From: an uncultured Thermosynechococcus sp.
GTDB lineage: Bacteria > Cyanobacteriota > Cyanobacteriia > Thermosynechococcales > Thermosynechococcaceae
Direction of reading: 5' to 3'
Assembly (NCBI RefSeq): GCF_938074695.1
Contig: NZ_CALJEM010000032.1
Coordinates: 1-43,921 of the forward strand
Length of the DNA stretch: 43,921 nucleotides
Shown: piece by piece, positions 8,126 to 43,921 of the stretch
Position numbering within the stretch: the stretch's first letter is position 1
Layout of the letters: each line of letters begins with the position of its first letter
Notes under the pieces: generated by a model
The model's database searches: none
What the model was told of the DNA's origin: nothing
The model's input: only the letters and a program-made list of their open reading frames with translations
Position numbers and translations under genes: made by a program

Positions 8126-8791
8126 ATGAACAAAGATCAACCCTTGGCACCCGTCTTTCGCCACATGGCCAGTGGCTTGTTTCCATCCACAACTGAAACC
8201 TACGAACGTGGGAAAACCATTTTCTTTCCAGGGGACCCAGCAGAAAAGGTTTATTTTCTCTTCAAGGGCGCAGTGAAGCTCTCCCGAGTGTATGAAGCAG
8301 GTGAAGAAATTACGGTGGCACTGCTGCGGGAAAATACGGTGTTTGGCGTGTTGTCCTTGATTACGGGCACCCGCTCCGATCGGTTTTACCATGCGGTGGC
8401 ATTTACAAATGTGGAACTATTGGCGGTTCCCATCGAACAGGTGGAAAAGGCAATGCACGAGGATGCAGAGTTGCTGATGTTTATGATTCAGGGGTTGTCA
8501 TCGCGCATCTTACAAACGGAGATGATGATTGAAACCCTTGCCCACCGCGATATGGGATCTCGCTTGGTCAGCTTTTTGCTGATTCTTTGCCGTGATTTTG
8601 GCATTCCCACCAGTGCTGGCATAACCGTGGATTTAAGGCTTTCCCATCAGGAAATTGCCGAGGCCATTGGTTCGACGCGGGTAACTGTGACGCGTCTATT
8701 GGGAGAACTGCGAGATCAAAAATTGATCTCAATCCACAAAAAGAAAATCACAGTCCACAATCCCCTCATGCTGAGCCAGCAGTTTACCTAA
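8126..8791 (+). CDS. ntcA: Global nitrogen regulator NtcA (CRP family)
   Basis: 221 aa. NtcA activates nitrogen-assimilation genes in cyanobacteria, sensing 2-oxoglutarate and binding GTA-N8-TAC. The N-terminal cyclic-nucleotide-like fold ([20 protein letters not shown], then GEEITVALL) is followed by the dimerisation helix and a C-terminal helix-turn-helix, [20 protein letters not shown]. These are very strongly conserved NtcA sequences, which separates it from CRP homologues. The ATG at 8126 gives [11 protein letters not shown]; an open leader back to 8030 is not conserved. A target site is visible in this window upstream of glnA. Its stop overlaps the stop of the convergent ABC gene by three bases (CTAA). 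Confidence 0.95.
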
Positions 8792-10416
8792 GGGTTGGTG
8801 GTTGTCACCAGTTGACCATAGTCCAGTTTAATCAGGCGATCGGCGACATCAAAGTAGCGATCGTCATGGCTAATCACAAACACCGTTTTGCCCTGGGCTT
8901 TTAGCTCTGGCAGAAGTTGGCGGTAAAAAATCTCCCGAAAGAGGGGGTCTTGATCCGCTGCCCATTCATCAAAGAGATAGGCGGGGCGATCGTCCAGATA
9001 GGCCATCAACAAGCCCAAACGCTTGCGCTCCCCTTGGGAAAGAGAGGTTGTGGAAAAGCGGTTACCTTCCAGGCGGACTTTGTGGCTCAAGCGCAATTTC
9101 TCAAGATAAGCGGGAACTGCTGCCAAGCGTTCGGGGGATTCAATGCCCAAGAGTGAGTCAAAAAGATAAAAGTCACTAAAAACTGTGGCAAAGTGTTGGC
9201 GATACCATTCATAGTCTTCAGGCTGCAAACAGTGATCATCCACCCAAATTTCCCCCTGATCGGGAATGTAGAGTCCCGTAATAATTTTGGCGAGGGTAGA
9301 TTTGCCACTGCCATTGCCACCCACAATAAACAGGAGTTCGCCAGCTTGGACGGTCAAACTTAAAGGCCCTAGGGTAAACGTTGCCGGTTCGTCCTCACGG
9401 TTGCCGTGGTATTGATGGCGAATCTGTCGCAGTGAGAGGGTTTTCCAGCCCAAGGGGGGGAGTTCCCCACGACCCTCAATGTCTTGGCGGGGATCTCCAA
9501 GGTTCAGGTGCAGGGATTCCACTTTTTTTAAGGCAACGCTGGCACGATTAAAGATAGGAATAGCATCAATTACCTGTTGCATCGGCAGCATTAGATAAAT
9601 AATCGTCAGAACATAGCCTGAGAGAACCGTTGGTGTGGCTTGGAGCAAATGGGGCAGCGTAAAGAGAAAGAAGCCAATCGTCACAAACAACAGCAACTGT
9701 CCCCAACTGGCAGCAATGGCAAAGACCATGTACCCTAGTTCGTTTTGCTGCCGTGTTTTCTGAGCAGTGGGTTCTAGCTCCCCATAAAAGAAAGCCAAGC
9801 GCCGTTGTCGGTTGAGCTTGAGTTCTTTGTTGCCTTCAGTCAGTGTCCGAAAGTGTTGAAAGAGGTGATCCTGTTGCTGCCGCGCCTGCTCTAGGAATTT
9901 TCGTGCTCTGCCCGCTAGAAACAAGTAGCTGCCAGTACCGATGGCAATCAAGGCAACAAGAGCAAAAAAGAGGGGCGGCGACAACCAGCCCATGTAAATC
10001 AGACAGCCAATGACAATGGCAATGGCATTAAAAAGATTGGGCAGGACGGAAAAGGAACGGGAGACGGCGTCCACGTCTTCTGTCAGCGTCGCAAGGAGTT
10101 GAGGATGACCAATGGCTTCTAAGTGGCGTAGGGGTGAGGCGAGAATCTGACGACTGAGGAGGAGACGCATTTCATAGACCGCCTGTTGGGCAGCCCGCAC
10201 CAGCAGAACTTGGGAGCTAAAGTGAGTGACTAGTAGAAGTGTGCCGAGGAGAATAAATCCCCAAGGCAAGAGCTGTTGTAGGACAGGGGTTTTCTGGAGA
10301 GCCGCATTAATCAGGGCAATGAGGGCAGCCGTGCTGCCACCGTTGAGAAGCCCAGCGATCGCTGCTGCAACAATCGTCGGCCAAGCCGCCTGTAATAGAA
10401 TCCGAAAGAGCTTCAC
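8788..10416 (-). CDS. Cyclic peptide export ABC transporter (SyrD/PvdE type)
   Basis: A 542-aa half-transporter: six-helix membrane domain (about residues 10-290) fused to an ATPase domain. Walker [10 protein letters not shown] is at 366-374, the signature LSQGE at 459-463, and Walker [12 protein letters not shown] at 481-491. The 'DEWAADQDP' form of Walker B is characteristic of the PvdE/SyrD exporter family, which moves siderophore precursors or lipopeptides to the periplasm. No peptide synthetase gene is nearby, so the cargo is unknown. The start codon is GTG, overlapping the stop of the upstream small gene as GTGA, which suggests translational coupling. Confidence 0.85.
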
Positions 10417-10856: not shown

Positions 10857-12191
10857 ATGAGCGATCGCGCCCTTCGACCGGCTGTTGTGGCTGCTGTGGA
10901 GCCTGGTTCTATTGCCGCTGAGTTGGGATTTGAACCCGGAGACGCTTTGGTGGCCATTAATGGCGATCGCCCCCGCGACTTGATTGACTATCGGTTTCTC
11001 TGTGCCGAGGAATACCTCACCCTCGAAGTGCTGGGCAAAGACGGCCAAACCTACGTCCTCGAAATTGAAAAAGACATTGATGAAGACTTAGGACTGGAGT
11101 TTACCACGGCCCTTTTTGATGGATTGATGCAGTGTAACAATCGCTGTCCCTTTTGCTTTATTGATCAGCAACCCCCCGGTAAACGGGAGAGCCTCTACGT
11201 CAAGGATGATGACTACCGCCTTAGCTTTCTCTATGGCAGTTACATTACCCTGACAAATCTGCTGCCCTCGGAGTGGCAACGCATTGCCCAACTGCGTCTT
11301 TCTCCCCTGTATGTCTCTGTCCATGCCACAGTGCCCAGCGTTCGCCAGCGCTTGCTGAAAAATCCACGCGCCGGGGAAATTCTCCAACAAATTCGCTGGT
11401 TTCAAGAGCAACGGCTGCAACTTCATGCCCAAGTGGTTGTCTGTCCGGGCATCAATGACGGGGAATGCCTTGAGCAAACACTGCGGGATTTAGCGCAGTT
11501 CTATGATCCGGAGGAACCAACCGTGCTTTCAGTGGCAGTGGTGCCCGTGGGTCTTACCCGCTTTCGCCCTCCTGAGGATGAACTGATTCCTGTCACCCCT
11601 GACCATGCCCAAGCGGTCATTCAGCAGGTACAAAGGCTCCAACAGCACTTTGAGCAGCAGTGGCAAACCCCCTTTGCCTGGTTGGCGGATGAATGGTTTT
11701 TGATTGCTGGCTGCCCCTTACCCCCTGCCGCCCACTATCAGGAGTATCCTCAACTCAGTAATGGCGTGGGCACAATTCGCCTGTTTTTAGAAGAGTTTGA
11801 CCTTCACGCCCAACAGCTTCCCCAACGCCTACCGCAGCCACGCCATCTCAGTTGGGTGGTGGGCAATGCGGTAGAACAAGCCTTTGCACCCCTAGTGGCT
11901 CGCCTTAATCAGATTGAGAACCTGCGCCTTGATCTGTATGCCCTTGCCAGTGACTATTGGGGACAGCAGATGTCGGTCACGGGTCTGTTGACCGGCCATG
12001 ATTTGATCTATCACCTAAAGGGCAAGCCCTTGGGCGATCGCCTACTGCTGCCCAGTCTCATGCTCAAGCACGATGAAGCAGTCTTTCTTGATGATGTGCC
12101 CTTAGCCACGGTGGAGGAGGCGCTAGAGGTACCAATTCAAGTGGTCTCCGGTGGCGCGGCAGGGATTATTGCCGCCTGTACCCATCCCTAA
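10857..12191 (+). CDS. DUF512 family radical-SAM-like protein with PDZ domain
   Basis: 444 aa. An N-terminal PDZ-like domain (about residues 5-70, VEPGSIAAELGFEPGDALVA) precedes a CX3CX2C cluster motif at Cys93, Cys97 and Cys100 (CNNRCPFC). The sequence continues FIDQQPPGKRESLYVKDDDY and a long C-terminal DUF512 region. This architecture is universal in oxygenic phototrophs and also found in Firmicutes, and its biochemical role is not established. The ATG is followed at once by a HIP1 site. The gene stands alone, with hemC starting 73 bases downstream on the same strand. Confidence 0.85.
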   Translation: MSDRALRPAVVAAVEPGSIAAELGFEPGDALVAINGDRPRDLIDYRFLCAEEYLTLEVLGKDGQTYVLEIEKDIDEDLGLEFTTALFDGLMQCNNRCPFCFIDQQPPGKRESLYVKDDDYRLSFLYGSYITLTNLLPSEWQRIAQLRLSPLYVSVHATVPSVRQRLLKNPRAGEILQQIRWFQEQRLQLHAQVVVCPGINDGECLEQTLRDLAQFYDPEEPTVLSVAVVPVGLTRFRPPEDELIPVTPDHAQAVIQQVQRLQQHFEQQWQTPFAWLADEWFLIAGCPLPPAAHYQEYPQLSNGVGTIRLFLEEFDLHAQQLPQRLPQPRHLSWVVGNAVEQAFAPLVARLNQIENLRLDLYALASDYWGQQMSVTGLLTGHDLIYHLKGKPLGDRLLLPSLMLKHDEAVFLDDVPLATVEEALEVPIQVVSGGAAGIIAACTHP

Positions 12192-12264
12192 AATGGCCGA
12201 TCTTGCCCCTTGGGATCCCCGCGACCTATAATGACTGGATGCTGTTCGCTGCACACCCAACACT

Positions 12265-13227
12265 ATGGTTGCCACCTCGTCCCGTCCGATTCGCATTGGT
12301 TCCCGCAAAAGTCAACTGGCTCTTGTGCAAACGGAATGGGTACAGGCGCAACTCCAAGCTCGCCATCGCGATCGCGCCTTTGAGGTGGTAACCATGACTA
12401 CCCAAGGGGACAATATCCTTGATGTCGCTCTTGCAAAAATTGGCGATAAAGGACTCTTTACCAAAGAGCTAGAACTTTCAATGCTGCGGGGCGAAACTGA
12501 TTTAGCCGTCCACTCTCTCAAAGATTTACCCACCAAGTTGCCGGAGGGCCTAGTTTTGGGCGCGATTACCCAGCGGGAAGACCCAGCGGATGCCCTTGTC
12601 TTGGGGGCGAAATGGACCGGATATACGATTGAGACCCTCCCCCCAGGCACGGTGATTGGTACTTCCTCCCTGCGCCGCTTGGCCCAACTGCGCCACTCCT
12701 ATCCCCATCTGACGTTCAAGGATGTGCGGGGGAACCTGAATACCCGCCTTGCCAAGTTGGATGCCGGGGAATACGATGCCTTGATTTTGGCGGTAGCCGG
12801 TCTACGGCGTTTGGGATTTGGCGATCGCATTAGCCAAGTCTTACCCGCAACGGTTTCTCTGTACGCCGTGGGTCAGGGCGCCTTGGGCATTGAATGCCGC
12901 GCCGAAGATGCCGACATCTTGGCCTTGGTCAAGACCCTCGAACATCCAGAAACAGCAGCTCGTTGCTTAGCGGAGCGAGCCTTCCTAAGGCAATTGGAAG
13001 GGGGCTGTCAAGTGCCCATTGGGGTACATACGGTGATTGAAAATGGCCAACTCACCCTCACAGGCTTAGTGGCGAGTCTCGATGGCCAACGCCTTGTCAA
13101 AGACAGTCTCACAGGGGAGCCTGCCAAGGCCGAAGAACTGGGGATGCGCCTTGCCCTAAAGCTGCGCGAACAGGGAGCCGCAGAGATTTTGGAAGAAATT
13201 TTTGCCACCGCACGTCCTGAACGGTAA
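12265..13227 (+). CDS. hemC: Porphobilinogen deaminase (hydroxymethylbilane synthase)
   Basis: 320 aa. It condenses four porphobilinogens into hydroxymethylbilane, the first linear tetrapyrrole on the way to haem, chlorophyll and phycobilins; it is cytosolic. Family motifs are [14 protein letters not shown] at the N-terminus, VHSLKDLPT (catalytic Asp87), [11 protein letters not shown] and [12 protein letters not shown] (substrate arginines). [10 protein letters not shown] contains Cys248, the attachment site of the dipyrromethane cofactor. Nothing is missing. It converges with the CHAT gene with only four bases between the stops. gun4, another tetrapyrrole gene, is 20 kb away and not linked. 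Confidence 0.95.
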
Positions 13228-13231
13228 TTAG

Positions 13232-14803
13232 TTACCACGGACTGCCAACTATCGTAAAGGCAGCCCAGAAGTAAGGATGGCTCAAGGAGCGATCGCCCAC
13301 CGCAAGTGCTGGGGGTAAGGGAATTGCGCCACGAATCGTTCGTAGTTCATTCCCCTTGACTGTAATATCTCCTCGCAACATGGCCAATTGAGCTTGGCGT
13401 AGTGCTTCCGCCTTGATGGGGGCTGTATTCAACTGATTGTAAAAGCCTGTCATCAAAGCCAGTGTCCCCTCATCACTGACATACCACAGACTGGCCACTA
13501 CCGACTTTACTCCTAACTGCACCGACAACCCGGCAAATCCCAGTTCTGCATCCAAGTCACCTACTGCTGTGCGACAGGCACTCAGGGTCAGTAATTCCGT
13601 TTCCGGACGATACAGGCGTAAATTCCGCAACTGCAATAAATTCAACCGCCCATCAGTAAAGACAATATAGGAGTTTTCAGGAGACCCTGGCTGAAACTGA
13701 GCATGGGTTGCCAGGTGGATGATTTGATAAATTCCCTGCCGATGCTGCCGCTGCAAGTTGGGAATCGTAAAGTCAGCATTGAGGAACTCCGTACCCCCCC
13801 CTAAATCCTTAGTAATTTGGTCTAGTTCTATGGGTACAGCGGGTAAGGGAGATTGGTCTTTGAACTCCGATGCCCCCATCGCCAGAATTTTCGCCCGTTG
13901 AATGTTGCGATAGCGCCTATCCGTTAAGCTCATGCTGGGCACGAGTGCCAGATTAAAACGTTCAATCAAAAAGCGTTGACCATCATGGAGCGCCGATAGA
14001 GGGACAGTCCGCAGGCCACTGTCAAGGACAAAAACCAAGGTTTCAATGCCTTGGGCATCCAATTGAGGTCGCAAAGGAGCGATCAACCATTGATAAAGTT
14101 GCTGGGATGCAGGTAGGTAGGCACGAGTATTGACCAAGCGTGGGTCACGAATACTATTGGTAAACTGGTTCGCCGTTTTTAGAAGCTGCTCCTGCCCAAC
14201 TGCCCGCACAGGTGCATAAATCGTCTCTCCCTCAGGCGTCACCATCATCAAATCCAGTTGGGTAGGGCGTGCCAGTGTATAGATGACGGCTGGCTTCTTA
14301 CCTGTTTGCTTGGCAATTTCATTTAGAGCAGCTTGCAAATCCTTGATCGATAGCTCTGGCTGGTTACAAAGCTGACCCAAGTAACTTGTTATCTCTTGGC
14401 AACCTCGTTGGTCTAGAAGAGGGATAGCACGGCTTGGATTGTTCCTTGCTAAAGCAATTTCAATCTCTTTTGTTGAGAGAATAGGAACCGGGAAGCCTGT
14501 GACTTCAATCGAGGGGAGGGTAACTGAGGGCGGAGGTTGCAGCAAATTATTGTAAGAAGGACTAGGTTCAGAAGGGTAAGAAGGACGAGGTTCAGAAGGG
14601 TAAGAAGGACTACGTTCAGAAGGGTAAGAAGGACGAGGTTCAGAAGGGTAAGAAGGAGGAGGGTAAGAAGGAGGAGGGTAAGAAGTCCGGGAAACACCAG
14701 CCAAAATCCATTTACTCGATACTAAAACTAAATTAATCCAGCAGGCTCCCGTAATACTGCCCAGAGCGTATGCAAGCAGAGATTGGAAGCGACGAGTTAA
14801 CAT
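13232..14803 (-). CDS. CHAT-domain (caspase-like) protein with Pro-rich repeat linker
   Basis: 523 aa. The N-terminus (residues 10-36) is hydrophobic and may be a signal anchor. Residues 41-85 are a low-complexity linker of PSYPSEPR-type repeats. The C-terminal half is a CHAT domain with the presumed catalytic pair His367 (HLATHAQF) and Cys410 (LSACRTA), followed by GFAGLSVQLGVKSVVASLW. CHAT proteins are predicted cysteine proteases, often fused to TPRs; here no TPR is seen. Substrate unknown. A membrane-anchored or secreted protease is plausible. It is divergent from nothing close: the PP2C gene lies 31 bases upstream on the same strand. Confidence 0.85.
   Translation of the reverse strand: MLTRRFQSLLAYALGSITGACWINLVLVSSKWILAGVSRTSYPPPSYPPPSYPSEPRPSYPSERSPSYPSEPRPSYPSEPSPSYNNLLQPPPSVTLPSIEVTGFPVPILSTKEIEIALARNNPSRAIPLLDQRGCQEITSYLGQLCNQPELSIKDLQAALNEIAKQTGKKPAVIYTLARPTQLDLMMVTPEGETIYAPVRAVGQEQLLKTANQFTNSIRDPRLVNTRAYLPASQQLYQWLIAPLRPQLDAQGIETLVFVLDSGLRTVPLSALHDGQRFLIERFNLALVPSMSLTDRRYRNIQRAKILAMGASEFKDQSPLPAVPIELDQITKDLGGGTEFLNADFTIPNLQRQHRQGIYQIIHLATHAQFQPGSPENSYIVFTDGRLNLLQLRNLRLYRPETELLTLSACRTAVGDLDAELGFAGLSVQLGVKSVVASLWYVSDEGTLALMTGFYNQLNTAPIKAEALRQAQLAMLRGDITVKGNELRTIRGAIPLPPALAVGDRSLSHPYFWAAFTIVGSPW
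14552..14695. repeat. Tandem repeats encoding the Pro-Ser-Tyr linker
   Basis: About four copies of a 24-base unit (consensus ggttcagaagggtaagaagg plus four bases, varying between acga and acta) are followed by two copies of a 15-base unit, gggtaagaaggagga. In the minus-strand protein these encode PSYPSE-P/R-R/S blocks and PPPSY blocks. Unit lengths are multiples of three, so copy-number change keeps the frame. Confidence 0.85.
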
Positions 14804-35453: not shown

Positions 35454-35756
35454 TCAAAGTAAGAAATCCTCGGGTGGCTGACGAGGTGTGAGAATTGGTA
35501 GGACATGTTCCAGGTTGCCATCGGGACGGGCAATAATCTGATGGGAAATAATGGCTTGCCCCTTGAGCGATCGCGCCGCCCGAACCGCTGCATTTACGTC
35601 CGCCACCTCTCCTCGAATCACCACCGTCCAATAGCCCGCACCAATTCCTTCACAACTCACAAGGGTAACCTGAGCGGCTTTCACCAATGTATCGGCCACA
35701 GCAAGGGCTGCCGGGTACCCCAAAACTTGCACCATGCCCACCGCCTCTGCGGCCAT
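35454..35756 (-). CDS. Single-domain BMC shell protein (CcmK-like)
   Basis: About 100 aa from the ATG at 35756, chosen because AAAGGGG lies seven bases upstream and CcmK proteins start similarly. The BMC fold is recognisable: AVGMVQVLGYPAALAVADTL, VKAAQVTLV, then TVVIRGEVADVNAAVRAA and HQIIARPDGNLEHVLP. These domains form hexameric tiles of the carboxysome shell. The pore loop is EGIGAGYW, whereas major CcmK proteins have EKIGSG, so the charged pore Lys is replaced. That suggests a minor shell component. An in-frame ATG at 35783 would add nine residues. It stands alone, away from any ccm cluster. Confidence 0.75.
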   Translation of the reverse strand: MAAEAVGMVQVLGYPAALAVADTLVKAAQVTLVSCEGIGAGYWTVVIRGEVADVNAAVRAARSLKGQAIISHQIIARPDGNLEHVLPILTPRQPPEDFLL

Positions 35757-35875: not shown

Positions 35876-36670
35876 TTACAAATTTACTACATCGAAAAGT
35901 GTAATCTCATTCAGGAGTCTCTGCTTTGCCAGTTCTGCATATCGAGGATCTATTTCAACACCGACGCCTTTTCGTTTATTAGCAAAGGCTTCTACCAGTG
36001 TTGTACCACTGCCACAAAAGGGATCGAAGACAGTATCCCTCGGAAAACTGAAGAGTTTGATACATCTTCTCGGTAGCTCTCTTGGAAAGGGGGCAGGATG
36101 ACCAATCTTTTTTTTACTCTCACCACTAAATGTCCATAGGCCATTTGTCCATTCCATGAACTCTTCTCGCGTGATGTCAGGGTTTTGATTGGATTTGCGC
36201 CGCCATTCCTCCTTATACAGCACGACAATTAACTCTACTGGAGCAATCACATAGGGCGCTGAAGGCGACATCCAAGACCCCCAAGCGGTGCGGCGTGAAA
36301 TATTCCCTTCATTCCAGACAATGGTGGATTGATATTTCCAACCAACCTCTTGGGCTAAAACGGTCAAATCGGCGCCTACACTGCGCTGCCCCCCTTTGTT
36401 CTTATCCAGTGGAATATTGAGACACAATCGCCCGCCTATTTTTGTCCAATTCAAACAGTTTGACATCCAAACTCTACTAAACTCTAGATAATCACTGTAG
36501 GGGACATCATCTTTCACCGAGTGATATTCAAGACCGACATTATAGGGCGGAGAAGTCACAATTAAGTCAATAAAAGGCTCAGTAAATAAGTCCGAATTAA
36601 GGCTATTGTCAAGGAATAGCCATATATCTTTCATTTGGAAAAATGCTTGTTTTTTAGAGATTATTTCCAT
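35876..36670 (-). CDS. Type II DNA methyltransferase (beta-class, TSPPY)
   Basis: 264 aa. An S-adenosylmethionine-dependent DNA amino-methyltransferase. The catalytic motif IV TSPPYN lies near residue 39, before the AdoMet-binding motif I DPFCGSGTTLVEAFANKRKG (about 219-238). This order is beta-class. The Ser-Pro-Pro-Tyr form is common in N4-cytosine methylases but not exclusive. It should protect the host from the endonuclease encoded just upstream; its ATG overlaps the end of that gene by ten bases. AT-rich and HIP1-free, unlike its surroundings, hence probably acquired by transfer. Confidence 0.85.
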   Translation of the reverse strand: MEIISKKQAFFQMKDIWLFLDNSLNSDLFTEPFIDLIVTSPPYNVGLEYHSVKDDVPYSDYLEFSRVWMSNCLNWTKIGGRLCLNIPLDKNKGGQRSVGADLTVLAQEVGWKYQSTIVWNEGNISRRTAWGSWMSPSAPYVIAPVELIVVLYKEEWRRKSNQNPDITREEFMEWTNGLWTFSGESKKKIGHPAPFPRELPRRCIKLFSFPRDTVFDPFCGSGTTLVEAFANKRKGVGVEIDPRYAELAKQRLLNEITLFDVVNL

Positions 36671-37335
36671 TGATCTTCTCGTACTAGTTTTTTAAGATCT
36701 GGTATTAAGTCTTTCATGGATTTTACTTTGTCAGCTCTATCAAAGTCCTGTTTTGCGATATAAACACCGTCGAGATCATATTCTAGTACAATGCGTGCCT
36801 TTCTGGGATTGGCTTTTGAAGATAGCTCATTGTCTTTATCAGGTGTGACCATTAGCACTTTTATGTGCTTAGTGGTATTAAAACTAGCTAGCTTCAGTTT
36901 CCAGTAAGGAGTTTCAGTGTATCTCTCACGAAAAGAATTTTTAACAGAAATAATCACTATTACTTGGTAGTTATTTTTGGAATAGATAACAATATCACTA
37001 TCTGGTAGTACTGAGTATTCACCAAAGAAAACTTCTATATTCCTTCTGACTGTTTCTAATTCGGGAGTTTTGGGATTGATTAACTCGCGATCAGAGGTTA
37101 TTCCTAATCCATGGTTATAACAAAAATCTTGCAAAAGTCTTTTGGTAATGTCTTCTAATACCCGACCAATAGTTGAAACCCATGCTTGCCTTGCCATTTT
37201 ATCATTTTCATAGGAGTGATTTGAATAAAATTGACTTTGCTGTTGATCTAGAAACTCATTTAATTTTTCAAGTGCTGCATCCCCGTGCTCTTTCAGAAAG
37301 GCTTCAAAGCTCTTAAGAATTTCTTCCTTATCCAT
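36661..37335 (-). CDS. Type II restriction endonuclease, BsaWI/CCGG-family-like
   Basis: 224 aa. The centre has a PD-(D/E)XK-type core: PDSDIVI supplies the Asp, and IISVKNSFRERYTE supplies a Lys. The latter also contains the R-E-R triplet that contacts CCGG in the CCGG-family enzymes (BsaWI, NgoMIV, Ecl18kI). It is followed by PYWKLKLAS. The N-terminal 60 residues are helical, as in BsaWI. I infer a target containing CCGG, most likely of BsaWI type (WCCGGW); this is not proven. The stop overlaps the methylase start. Strong AT bias compared with the flanks supports horizontal transfer. Confidence 0.65.
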   Translation of the reverse strand: MDKEEILKSFEAFLKEHGDAALEKLNEFLDQQQSQFYSNHSYENDKMARQAWVSTIGRVLEDITKRLLQDFCYNHGLGITSDRELINPKTPELETVRRNIEVFFGEYSVLPDSDIVIYSKNNYQVIVIISVKNSFRERYTETPYWKLKLASFNTTKHIKVLMVTPDKDNELSSKANPRKARIVLEYDLDGVYIAKQDFDRADKVKSMKDLIPDLKKLVREDQWK

Positions 37336-41672: not shown

Positions 41673-42758
41673 ATGGCAACCCCATATCGGATTGCGGTTT
41701 TGGCCGGGGATGGCATTGGTCCAGAAATTACCGCTGTAGCGCTGGAGGTGTTGCGGGCGATCGCCCCTCGCTTTAACCTCGAATTTGAGTTTGTGCCTGC
41801 GTTAGTGGGGGGAGCGGCCATTGACGCGGTGGGAGAACCCCTGCCAGCCGCAACCCTCAAAACCTGTCGCCAGAGTGATGCCGTCCTTCTAGCTGCCATT
41901 GGCGGCACGCAGTGGGACAATTTGCCCCGCCATCTGCGCCCGGAAACCGGCCTCCTTGCCCTCCGCGCCGGTCTGGGGTTATTTGCCAACTTACGCCCCG
42001 CCAAAATCTTTCCCCAACTGATCCATGCCTCTTCCTTGAAGCCAGAGGTGATTGCGGGTGTGGATCTGATGGTGGTGCGCGAACTCACGGGTGGCATTTA
42101 CTTTGGTCAACCGCGGGGAATCTTCACCACTGAAACGGGGGAGCAGCGGGGGGTTAATACCATGGCCTACACTGCAGGCGAGATTGATCGCATTGGGCGA
42201 GTGGCCTTTGAGATCGCCCGCAAACGGCAGGGCAAGCTCTGCTCGGTAGATAAGGCCAATGTTCTCGAGGTCTCTCAACTGTGGCGCGATCGCCTGAGTG
42301 CCCTGAGTATAGAGTATCCCGATGTGGCGCTAACCCATCTTTACGTGGACAATGCCGCCATGCAGCTAGTGCGCGCCCCAAAACAATTTGACACAATTGT
42401 TACCGCTAACCTATTTGGGGATATTCTCTCTGACATTGCGGCAATGCTCACGGGGAGTATTGGAATGCTGCCCTCGGCAAGTCTGGGGGAATCTGGTCCC
42501 GGTCTGTTTGAACCGGTGCACGGCTCTGCCCCAGATATTGCCGGTCAAGATAAGGCCAATCCTTTGGCAATGGTGCTGAGTGCAGCAATGATGCTGCGTT
42601 ACGGTCTGAACCAGCCAGCGGCAGCGCAAGCAATTGAGGAGGCAATTACTGCCGTTTTAGATCGCGGGTATCGCACCGCCGATCTCATGGCGGAGGGCTG
42701 TACCCTTGTGGGCTGTCGGGAGATGGGTGACCTGTTGATTAAGGAATTGTCCCCCTAG
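41673..42758 (+). CDS. leuB: 3-isopropylmalate dehydrogenase
   Basis: 361 aa. NAD-dependent oxidative decarboxylation of 3-isopropylmalate in leucine synthesis; cytosolic dimer. Motifs: [20 protein letters not shown] at the N-terminus, [50 protein letters not shown] and [34 protein letters not shown] holds the conserved Asp residues that bind the divalent cation. [20 protein letters not shown] is the cofactor loop and indicates NAD preference. Complete. GAGAGAG lies just before the ATG. Confidence 0.95.
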
Positions 42759-42784: not shown

Positions 42785-43921
42785 TTAGACACCGATTAAC
42801 TTGTCGCGGTCTAGGGTTGCAACGAGGTCAAGAGACGGAAGGCGGGAAAACTCTTGACTCAGGCGATGGGCTAAGTGCAGTACCCAGGGCAGGCGAGCAT
42901 GGCTGAAAGCACTCCCCGGATGTAACTGGGTCAAGTGGTAGGTTTGGATGGCCAGTTGCTCTAGGGAAGTTTTCCCATACTCGTGAACCACCCGCAGAGG
43001 TCGAGCACTGCCGAGTTCCTTGCCCCTACTTTTGATGGGTTGGCTGCTAATGAGAATAAATGAGCGCTCTTGTTCCTCAAAAACCACGGTTCCCTTCGGG
43101 GCAGCGGCATATTGATCATTTTCTATTTTTTGAGGATCATTTTCTATTTTTTGAGGATCATTTTCTATTTTTTGAGCGAGCCGCCCTGCACCCGTTTTAC
43201 GCACACTCAGAAGATCTACCGCAATGTTCATTTTTCCGAGTTCATCAATTGTGCGTTGGAACTCGTCTTGCCGCGCTAAGCCATCCCGCAGCAGAAGAAC
43301 CTTCTTAGGATAGCGCTTTTCGGAGTGGTACTGCTTAAACTTACCCACGAGCTTGCAGACGGTCTGCCAGAGTGCCTCGCCACTGATTTTCTCCCCCCGT
43401 TGTACTGACGGCAGTTCCCACCCCAAGGATTGACCATTGGCAAGGATGGCAAAGGCAGGAGTGCCAAAGTATAGAGAACGATTGGTACCTGCATCGAAAC
43501 CAATGATCAGTTCCGCCCACTCAGAATGTGGCTGTAGATGGATGGGCTGCCACTTGGCTTTGCAAAGCAGACCCAAGACAATGTTGAAGGCTTTGTATTG
43601 ATTGAGATCTTTTGGTGTAAAAAACTGGGTGGCAATGCCTGCCCTCAGTGCCCCACTACGAACGCGCTGCTTTTCTGGAGAGTAAGGCATCATCACAAGG
43701 ATTGTTCTAACTCCTTCCCTAGCCCACTGCTGCCAAAATTCCTGCTGTTGGAGATCGCCTTCGCCCATATCAGATCGCGTGCGAAATGACTGAATTTCCA
43801 AGGATTTGCCGTGGATGCGCCCCAACTCCTTCAGGCACTTAGTAATTTCCTTGGGACAGATGTGCTCGTCTGTGCACAAGTTCAGCAGGCCGAATTTCTC
43901 TTCGCCGACGCGAGCACAGCC
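42785..43921 (-). CDS. Prokaryotic Argonaute, MID-PIWI part (partial; 5' end outside window)
   Basis: The frame runs open to the right edge (14 codons beyond the TTG at 43879), so the gene is truncated by the window. Counting from that TTG, residues about 15-115 are a MID domain (ILVMMPYSPEKQRVRSGALR, AGIATQFF, LLGLLCKAKW). The rest is PIWI: Asp129 (IIGFDAGTN), Glu163 (QRGEKI), Asp199 (LLLRDGL) and His337 (LHLAHRL), a DEDH tetrad. The last strand and tail (DRDKLIGV) resemble Thermus thermophilus Ago closely. It should be a guide-directed nuclease in host defence or chromosome decatenation. Three heptad copies (KIENDPQ) interrupt PIWI at residues 237-255. Confidence 0.88.
   Translation of the reverse strand, partial: GCARVGEEKFGLLNLCTDEHICPKEITKCLKELGRIHGKSLEIQSFRTRSDMGEGDLQQQEFWQQWAREGVRTILVMMPYSPEKQRVRSGALRAGIATQFFTPKDLNQYKAFNIVLGLLCKAKWQPIHLQPHSEWAELIIGFDAGTNRSLYFGTPAFAILANGQSLGWELPSVQRGEKISGEALWQTVCKLVGKFKQYHSEKRYPKKVLLLRDGLARQDEFQRTIDELGKMNIAVDLLSVRKTGAGRLAQKIENDPQKIENDPQKIENDQYAAAPKGTVVFEEQERSFILISSQPIKSRGKELGSARPLRVVHEYGKTSLEQLAIQTYHLTQLHPGSAFSHARLPWVLHLAHRLSQEFSRLPSLDLVATLDRDKLIGV
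43114..43176. repeat. Three perfect 21-bp tandem repeats inside the Argonaute gene
   Basis: Three identical copies of gatcattttctattttttga plus g (43114-43134, 43135-43155, 43156-43176). On the coding minus strand each encodes a seven-residue unit equivalent to KIENDPQ. The unit is a multiple of three, so copy-number change would preserve the frame. It is markedly AT-rich within a GC-balanced gene. Confidence 0.95.

What the first reader, a model, noticed from the sequence alone, without database searches (positions are those of the whole stretch)
42785..43921. TtAgo-like Argonaute with DEDH tetrad in a cyanobacterium
The sequence shows a MID-PIWI half with D129/E163/D199/H337 in the correct order. 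From memory, its last 150 residues follow Thermus thermophilus Ago closely (RDG motif, SVRK-G-GR, LHLA[D/H]RL, DR[D/E]KL). The fourth tetrad residue is His instead of the Asp of TtAgo, as in many active eukaryotic enzymes, so activity is expected. A thermophilic cyanobacterial Ago could be a DNA-guided nuclease with a role in replication-terminus processing or plasmid defence (inference).
Basis: partly seen in the sequence, partly recalled or inferred. Interest (0 to 1): 0.75.

Follow-up and report, generated by a model that had tools for sequence, protein, structure and literature searches.

The report
Heat-loving cyanobacterium's TtAgo-like Argonaute, cut short
The end of this contig carries the catalytic half of a bacterial Argonaute, a probable DNA-guided DNA-cutting defence enzyme of a kind already known from its genus, with one active-site acid swapped for histidine as in three relatives.

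Summary
Window 42785-43921 (-) encodes the C-terminal 378 residues (MID and PIWI) of a long-A prokaryotic Argonaute whose closest solved relative is Thermus thermophilus Ago (E 1.7e-44; fold match). The tetrad is D143/E177/D213/H352; H352 aligns with TtAgo D660. The gene is cut by the contig end; the N-terminal half was not found elsewhere in the 90.8% complete assembly. The three relatives with the same tetrad are unbroken, 721-743 aa, with a PAZ domain. Histidine is a clade trait: 4 rows of 46 have it (4 same-genus genomes), 39 have Asp, 3 are cut off there, and the four form one clade at 100/100. All 11 same-genus genomes searched carry a TtAgo-like gene, at several chromosomal sites and more diverged than LeuB. 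Predicted active DEDX long-A pAgos in Thermosynechococcus are already in print, with X defined as D, H or K (PMC10653904). So: a new member of a known kind with a small lineage-specific active-site variant. DNA-guided interference with incoming DNA is the best guess; activity and role are untested.

The parts
42785..43921 (-). 3' part of an argonaute (pAgo) gene, 378 codons plus stop; MID (about residues 1-130) and PIWI (about 131-378); 5' part lost at the contig end
43493..43495 (-). codon of catalytic D143 (TtAgo D478)
43391..43393 (-). codon of catalytic E177 (TtAgo E512, the glutamate finger)
43283..43285 (-). codon of catalytic D213 (TtAgo D546)
42866..42868 (-). codon of catalytic H352 (TtAgo D660)
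43114..43176 (-). three perfect 21-bp tandem copies inside the gene, coding a 7-residue repeat (QKIENDP) in a low-confidence PIWI loop; not in the 20 other rows aligned
41673..42758 (+). leuB-type gene (Pfam Iso_dh; the name leuB is recalled), convergent neighbour; the same pairing is seen in G009

Best explanation
This is the MID-PIWI half of a stand-alone, probably catalytically competent long-A prokaryotic Argonaute of the TtAgo / cyanobacterial active group. Most likely it binds short 5'-phosphorylated DNA guides in the MID pocket and cuts complementary DNA opposite guide positions 10-11 with a two-metal RNase H-type site, in which H352 replaces the fourth carboxylate. Its most likely role is to limit incoming DNA such as plasmids, phage and DNA taken up by transformation. 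Shown here: gene, family, tetrad and pocket alignment, fold match, one-clade origin of the His, and presence in every genome of the genus searched. Inferred: guide and target type, cleavage, and role.
For: phmmer to TtAgo 1.7e-44; PADLOC pAgo 1.4e-143; Foldseek ranks 1-31 of the window model (mean pLDDT 84.4) are TtAgo structures, best E 1.9e-27, TMq 0.75-0.81. Tetrad D143/E177/D213/H352 and K84/R88/Q99/K121 with C-terminal V378 line up with TtAgo D478/E512/D546/D660, R418/K422/Q433/K457 and V685 (that the latter line the guide 5' pocket is recalled). The three other DEDH proteins are unbroken with PAZ_3 (4e-19, 1.1e-24, 5.3e-25). A TtAgo-like gene is in 11 of 11 same-genus genomes, while between these genomes LeuB is 86-98% and the Ago C half 54-95% identical. 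One genome's two ago copies lie beside a Cmr2_N (type III CRISPR) gene and a ResIII gene (G008). SeAgo, which PMC10653904 places in the same active cyanobacterial group, lowers transformation and prevents maintenance of RSF1010 replicons (start of abstract; section 5).
Against: I found no activity data for this protein, and the paper listings show no biochemical study of a Thermosynechococcus pAgo. Half the protein is missing, so an inactivating change upstream cannot be excluded. No defence partner is shared by the 16 fetched neighbourhoods; the leuB, recO and ccm neighbours are housekeeping genes. Pfam Piwi is weak: it is not reported at E <= 1 for two of the three DEDH relatives nor for the DEDD copy L020, and a PF02171 search of the own genome missed the gene (0 of 1). 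Side-chain geometry of H352 was not measured.
Confidence: 0.78

Rival explanations
1. The protein mainly serves replication: loaded with terminus-derived guides, it helps separate daughter chromosomes, as reported for TtAgo and for SeAgo/LrAgo in E. coli.
For: Present in 11 of 11 same-genus genomes at different sites, as a housekeeping-like role would predict; terminus guides and ciprofloxacin protection by SeAgo and LrAgo in E. coli (PMC10269773, passages).
Against: High divergence relative to LeuB, near-identical copies in genomes of different families (L005 and L020, 98% in the C half) and extra copies in G003 and G008 look more like defence. [quoted passage not shown]
Confidence: 0.12
2. 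A decaying or already broken gene: the 5' half is missing because it is a pseudogene, and D-to-H plus the repeat insert mark relaxed selection.
For: N half not found in the assembly; three perfect 21-bp repeats in the frame.
Against: The frame is open to the last base of the contig; the terminal 142 bases were matched once only in the assembly, which is 90.76% complete, so missing sequence is expected (recO, found in the other 10 genus genomes, is not found either). His is shared by three unbroken relatives; the repeat is in frame and lies in a loop whose length varies among relatives.
Confidence: 0.07
3. The D-to-H change alters chemistry: the DEDH clade prefers other metals or RNA targets, so it is functionally distinct from the DEDD paralogues (compatible with the best explanation, but a different activity).
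For: The fourth residue contacts metal site A in AtAGO10, where it is His (H935, PMC10772731 passage); the change is confined to one clade, and one genome (G003) holds a DEDH and a DEDD copy.
Against: DEDX with X = D, H or K is treated as one active class in print (PMC6299218 passage; PMC10653904); no biochemical data here.
Confidence: 0.15

Closest known systems
Thermus thermophilus Argonaute (TtAgo)
   Same: Fold, MID pocket positions, first three catalytic residues, C-terminal Val; 36% identity over the half
   Different: Fourth catalytic residue His not Asp; beside leuB here, on plasmid pTT27 in HB27; loop insert with a tandem repeat
DEDD TtAgo-like pAgos of the same genus at the ccm locus (G001, G002, G004-G007)
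   Same: Same family, 54-57% identical in the C half
   Different: Asp at position 4; located between a TonB_C gene and the ccmK-type BMC gene instead of beside leuB
SeAgo of Synechococcus elongatus (active cyanobacterial long-A pAgo)
   Same: [quoted passage not shown] thermophilus, which also holds Thermosynechococcus (PMC10653904 section 5)
   Different: Not compared here: its sequence was not fetched

Membership tests
long-A catalytically active pAgo | PIWI domain with DEDX tetrad, X = D, H or K | tested here: met
   D143/E177/D213/H352 aligned with TtAgo; definition from PMC6299218 passage
long-A catalytically active pAgo | MID domain with 5'-phosphate guide pocket | tested here: met
   K84/R88/Q99/K121 aligned with TtAgo R418/K422/Q433/K457, two of them basic-for-basic exchanges; pocket role of the TtAgo residues recalled
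long-A catalytically active pAgo | N and PAZ domains | tested here: inconclusive
   Absent from the window because the contig ends; PAZ_3 present in all three DEDH relatives
TtAgo-like active cyanobacterial clade | Groups with Thermus and active cyanobacterial pAgos, apart from other pAgos | tested here: met
   40-row tree: fork of 34 rows holding the Thermus and cyanobacterial TtAgo-like rows, 99/99 (root at midpoint, and the tool warned of long branches, the 6 rows outside this fork being distant)
DNA-guided nuclease | Guide-dependent cleavage | not testable with these tools
   Needs purified protein
TtAgo-type DEDD site | Asp as fourth catalytic residue | tested here: not met
   His in the window and three relatives

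The most novel reading that the evidence does not exclude
Thermosynechococcus keeps an obligatory but fast-changing Argonaute, present in every genome searched yet at several chromosomal sites, and one branch swapped the fourth metal ligand from Asp to His, giving an enzyme with different metal or target preference from its DEDD paralogue in the same cell (G003). That would be a natural experiment on what the fourth tetrad residue does.
Probability: 0.15. Interest if true: 0.5.

Novelty: new member of a known kind. Interest (0 to 1): 0.27.

Why it matters
Thermostable DNA-guided nucleases are used as tools, and a DEDH/DEDD pair inside one thermophilic genus, even inside one genome, would let the role of the fourth catalytic residue be tested in related enzymes. 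The gene itself belongs to a published group.

Tried and rejected
Looked for the missing 5' half in the window's own assembly with the N half of the G003 protein: nothing. N halves inside the DEDH clade are only 38-54% identical and the call itself warns that an empty answer without a control shows nothing, so this is a weak negative. PF02171 against the own genome gave 0 of 1 although hmmscan of the protein passes the cut-off: a miss of that tool, not evidence against the gene.

First scan of genome contigs with the single protein found no relative; the alignment query gave 24 loci. Pseudogene and chance-match readings were judged unlikely. A partner gene shared by the 16 fetched neighbourhoods was looked for and not found.

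Sequencing error for the His was rejected: four separate genomes share it. That DEDH came into this genome alone by recent transfer was not supported: a tree of CcmM, CcmL and LeuB pairs G000 with G009 (95/98) and G003 with G010 (100/100), the same pairs that share an ago site. DEDH in the genus ancestor followed by DEDD replacement fits as well as two separate entries; not resolved. The weak PADLOC defence hits of window ORF 8788-10416 are explained by its being an ABC transporter.

Full report
Observation. The minus-strand frame 43921-42785 is open to the last base of the window and ends in a stop at 42785. The window is the whole of contig G000:C32 (43,921 bp) in an assembly of 83 contigs, 2.13 Mb, 90.76% complete, so the gene is cut by the contig end, not by a stop in what can be seen. 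The 378 residues match TtAgo (phmmer 1.7e-44), Clostridium perfringens Ago (1.1e-14) and the 6qzk Argonaute (3.9e-07; C. butyricum by its title) among solved chains, PADLOC pAgo at 1.4e-143 and Pfam Piwi at 5.6e-9, 36.1 bits against a cut-off of 28.9. This is far beyond chance.

Active site. In a 46-row alignment with TtAgo, D143, E177, D213 and H352 fall on TtAgo D478, E512, D546 and D660; K84, R88, Q99, K121 and the terminal V378 fall on R418, K422, Q433, K457 and V685. That these TtAgo residues line the guide 5' pocket is recalled. The model of the window protein (mean pLDDT 84.4, pTM 0.84, 21-row alignment) finds TtAgo complexes first in the PDB (best E 1.9e-27, TMq 0.77). I had no coordinates, so side-chain geometry of H352 was not measured.

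How widespread is the His. Of 21 rows, 4 have His (window, G010, first copy of G003, G009) and 17 have Asp. Of 46 rows, 4 have His (window, G010, G003, and L039, whose contig has the length of G009's), 39 have Asp and 3 have no residue there because the frame is cut (L056, L058, L060); several rows are the same gene fetched twice, and in five distant rows (L067-L071) the Glu position is not aligned. The four His rows form one side of a branch with support 100/100, both in a 40-row tree (of the 46, 10 left out as broken, as second copies of the same gene or, once, as a distant double, and 4 others added) and in a C-half tree of 34 rows with the tetrad column masked (12 of the 46 left out). So it is most simply a single change confined to one lineage, not an error.

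Missing half. Searching the own genome with the N half of the G003 DEDH protein gave nothing, a weak negative; recO too was not found in this assembly, while the 10 other same-genus genomes have it. The three DEDH relatives are 732, 721 and 743 aa, unbroken, with PAZ_3; Pfam Piwi is reported for only one of them. The model of the G009-type relative L039 (743 aa, mean pLDDT 82.4) matches full-length TtAgo (E 1.2e-52). The window's gene was therefore most likely a four-domain protein too (inference).

Genus and context. Two same-genus genomes have contigs of the same lengths as named records: Thermosynechococcus sp. M46_R2017_013 (9,545 bp, G009) and M98_K2018_005 (120,228 bp, G008). All 11 genomes of the genus searched carry a TtAgo-like gene, against 2 of 18 other genomes of the family (19 of 58 searched had any match). 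In an even draw of 386 genomes of the phylum, 15 had any match: 4 of the genus, 4 others with a strong match (E below 1e-140) and 7 with weaker matches. The Fisher values mix two searches and treat related genomes as independent, so I do not lean on them.

Sites. In six genomes the DEDD gene lies between a TonB_C gene and a BMC (ccmK-type) gene followed by ccmL- and ccmM-type genes (the ccm names beyond the Pfam domains are recalled). G008 has that site without ago (TonB_C gene and ccmK2 about 0.7 kb apart, at a contig start), and the stretches fetched around ccmK2 of G000, G009, G003 and G010 gave no hit to the DEDD ago of G006 used as query. The DEDH gene is convergent with leuB in the window and in G009, and just upstream of recO in G010 and G003 (RecO domains). 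Sequence beyond ago in G009 matches sequence downstream of leuB in 4 of 9 other genomes (G005, G008, G001, G007; 76-79% identical), so there ago sits within an otherwise shared stretch; the other 5 gave only chance matches. A tree of CcmM, CcmL and LeuB pairs G000 with G009 and G003 with G010, so each pair can have inherited its gene vertically; how the two sites arose is open. G003 has a second, DEDD copy 98% (C half) and 96% (N half) identical to one in G044, a genome of another family, best explained by recent transfer. G008 has two near-identical copies 13.7 kb apart, beside Cmr2_N and ResIII genes.

Rate. Between genomes of the genus LeuB is 86-98% identical while Ago C halves are 54-95%, and N halves mostly diverge more. 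This fits a defence gene but could also reflect repeated replacement.

Repeat. Three perfect 21-bp copies (43114-43176; 0 matches in 100 shuffles) encode a 7-residue repeat in the loop after SVRKTGAGR. The loop varies in length among relatives and is of low confidence in the model (residues 251-270, block means 59 and 51). The repeat is absent from the other 20 rows; copy number in an assembly may be unreliable.

What it does. The best reading is a DNA-guided DNA nuclease acting on incoming DNA, by homology to TtAgo and to the active cyanobacterial group; SeAgo of that group limits transformation and RSF1010 upkeep (PMC10653904: start of abstract, passages, section 5). A role at replication termination is reported for TtAgo and, in E. 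coli, for SeAgo and LrAgo (PMC10269773: passages). The fourth residue binds metal at site A in AtAGO10, where it is His (PMC10772731: passages), so His here is compatible with catalysis. ChAgo of Chroococcidiopsis is DEDD and cuts DNA (PMC11817465: passages).

Novelty. [quoted passage not shown] thermophilus; X is defined as D, H or K there and in PMC6299218 (passages). The listings show, by title and start of abstract, no biochemical study of a Thermosynechococcus pAgo and no mention of a DEDH subclade in that genus; they cover open PMC papers only. I file it as a new member of a known kind.

Noticed in passing
window 35876-37335 (-): Type II restriction-modification pair: N6/N4 DNA methylase (35876-36670) and BsaWI-like endonuclease (36661-37335), about 5.5 kb from ago; no match in the syntenic G009 contig, where only the cofH-type neighbour matched.
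   Followed up: partly
L020 (G003) and L005 (G044): Ago genes 98% (C half) and 96% (N half) identical in genomes of different families, best explained by recent transfer; G003 also has the DEDH copy.
   Followed up: partly
L028 (G008:C10:15000-34900): Two near-identical ago copies 13.7 kb apart (100% C half, 99% N half); a Cmr2_N gene lies at L028 2471-3202 next to one copy and a ResIII gene at 11383-13566 between the copies.
   Followed up: partly
window 14552-14671: 24-bp tandem repeat, five copies, inside the CHAT-domain ORF 13232-14803 (-).
   Followed up: no
window 35490-35744 (-): A further BMC shell-type gene (52% identical to ccmK2 of the genus) about 7 kb from ago.
   Followed up: no
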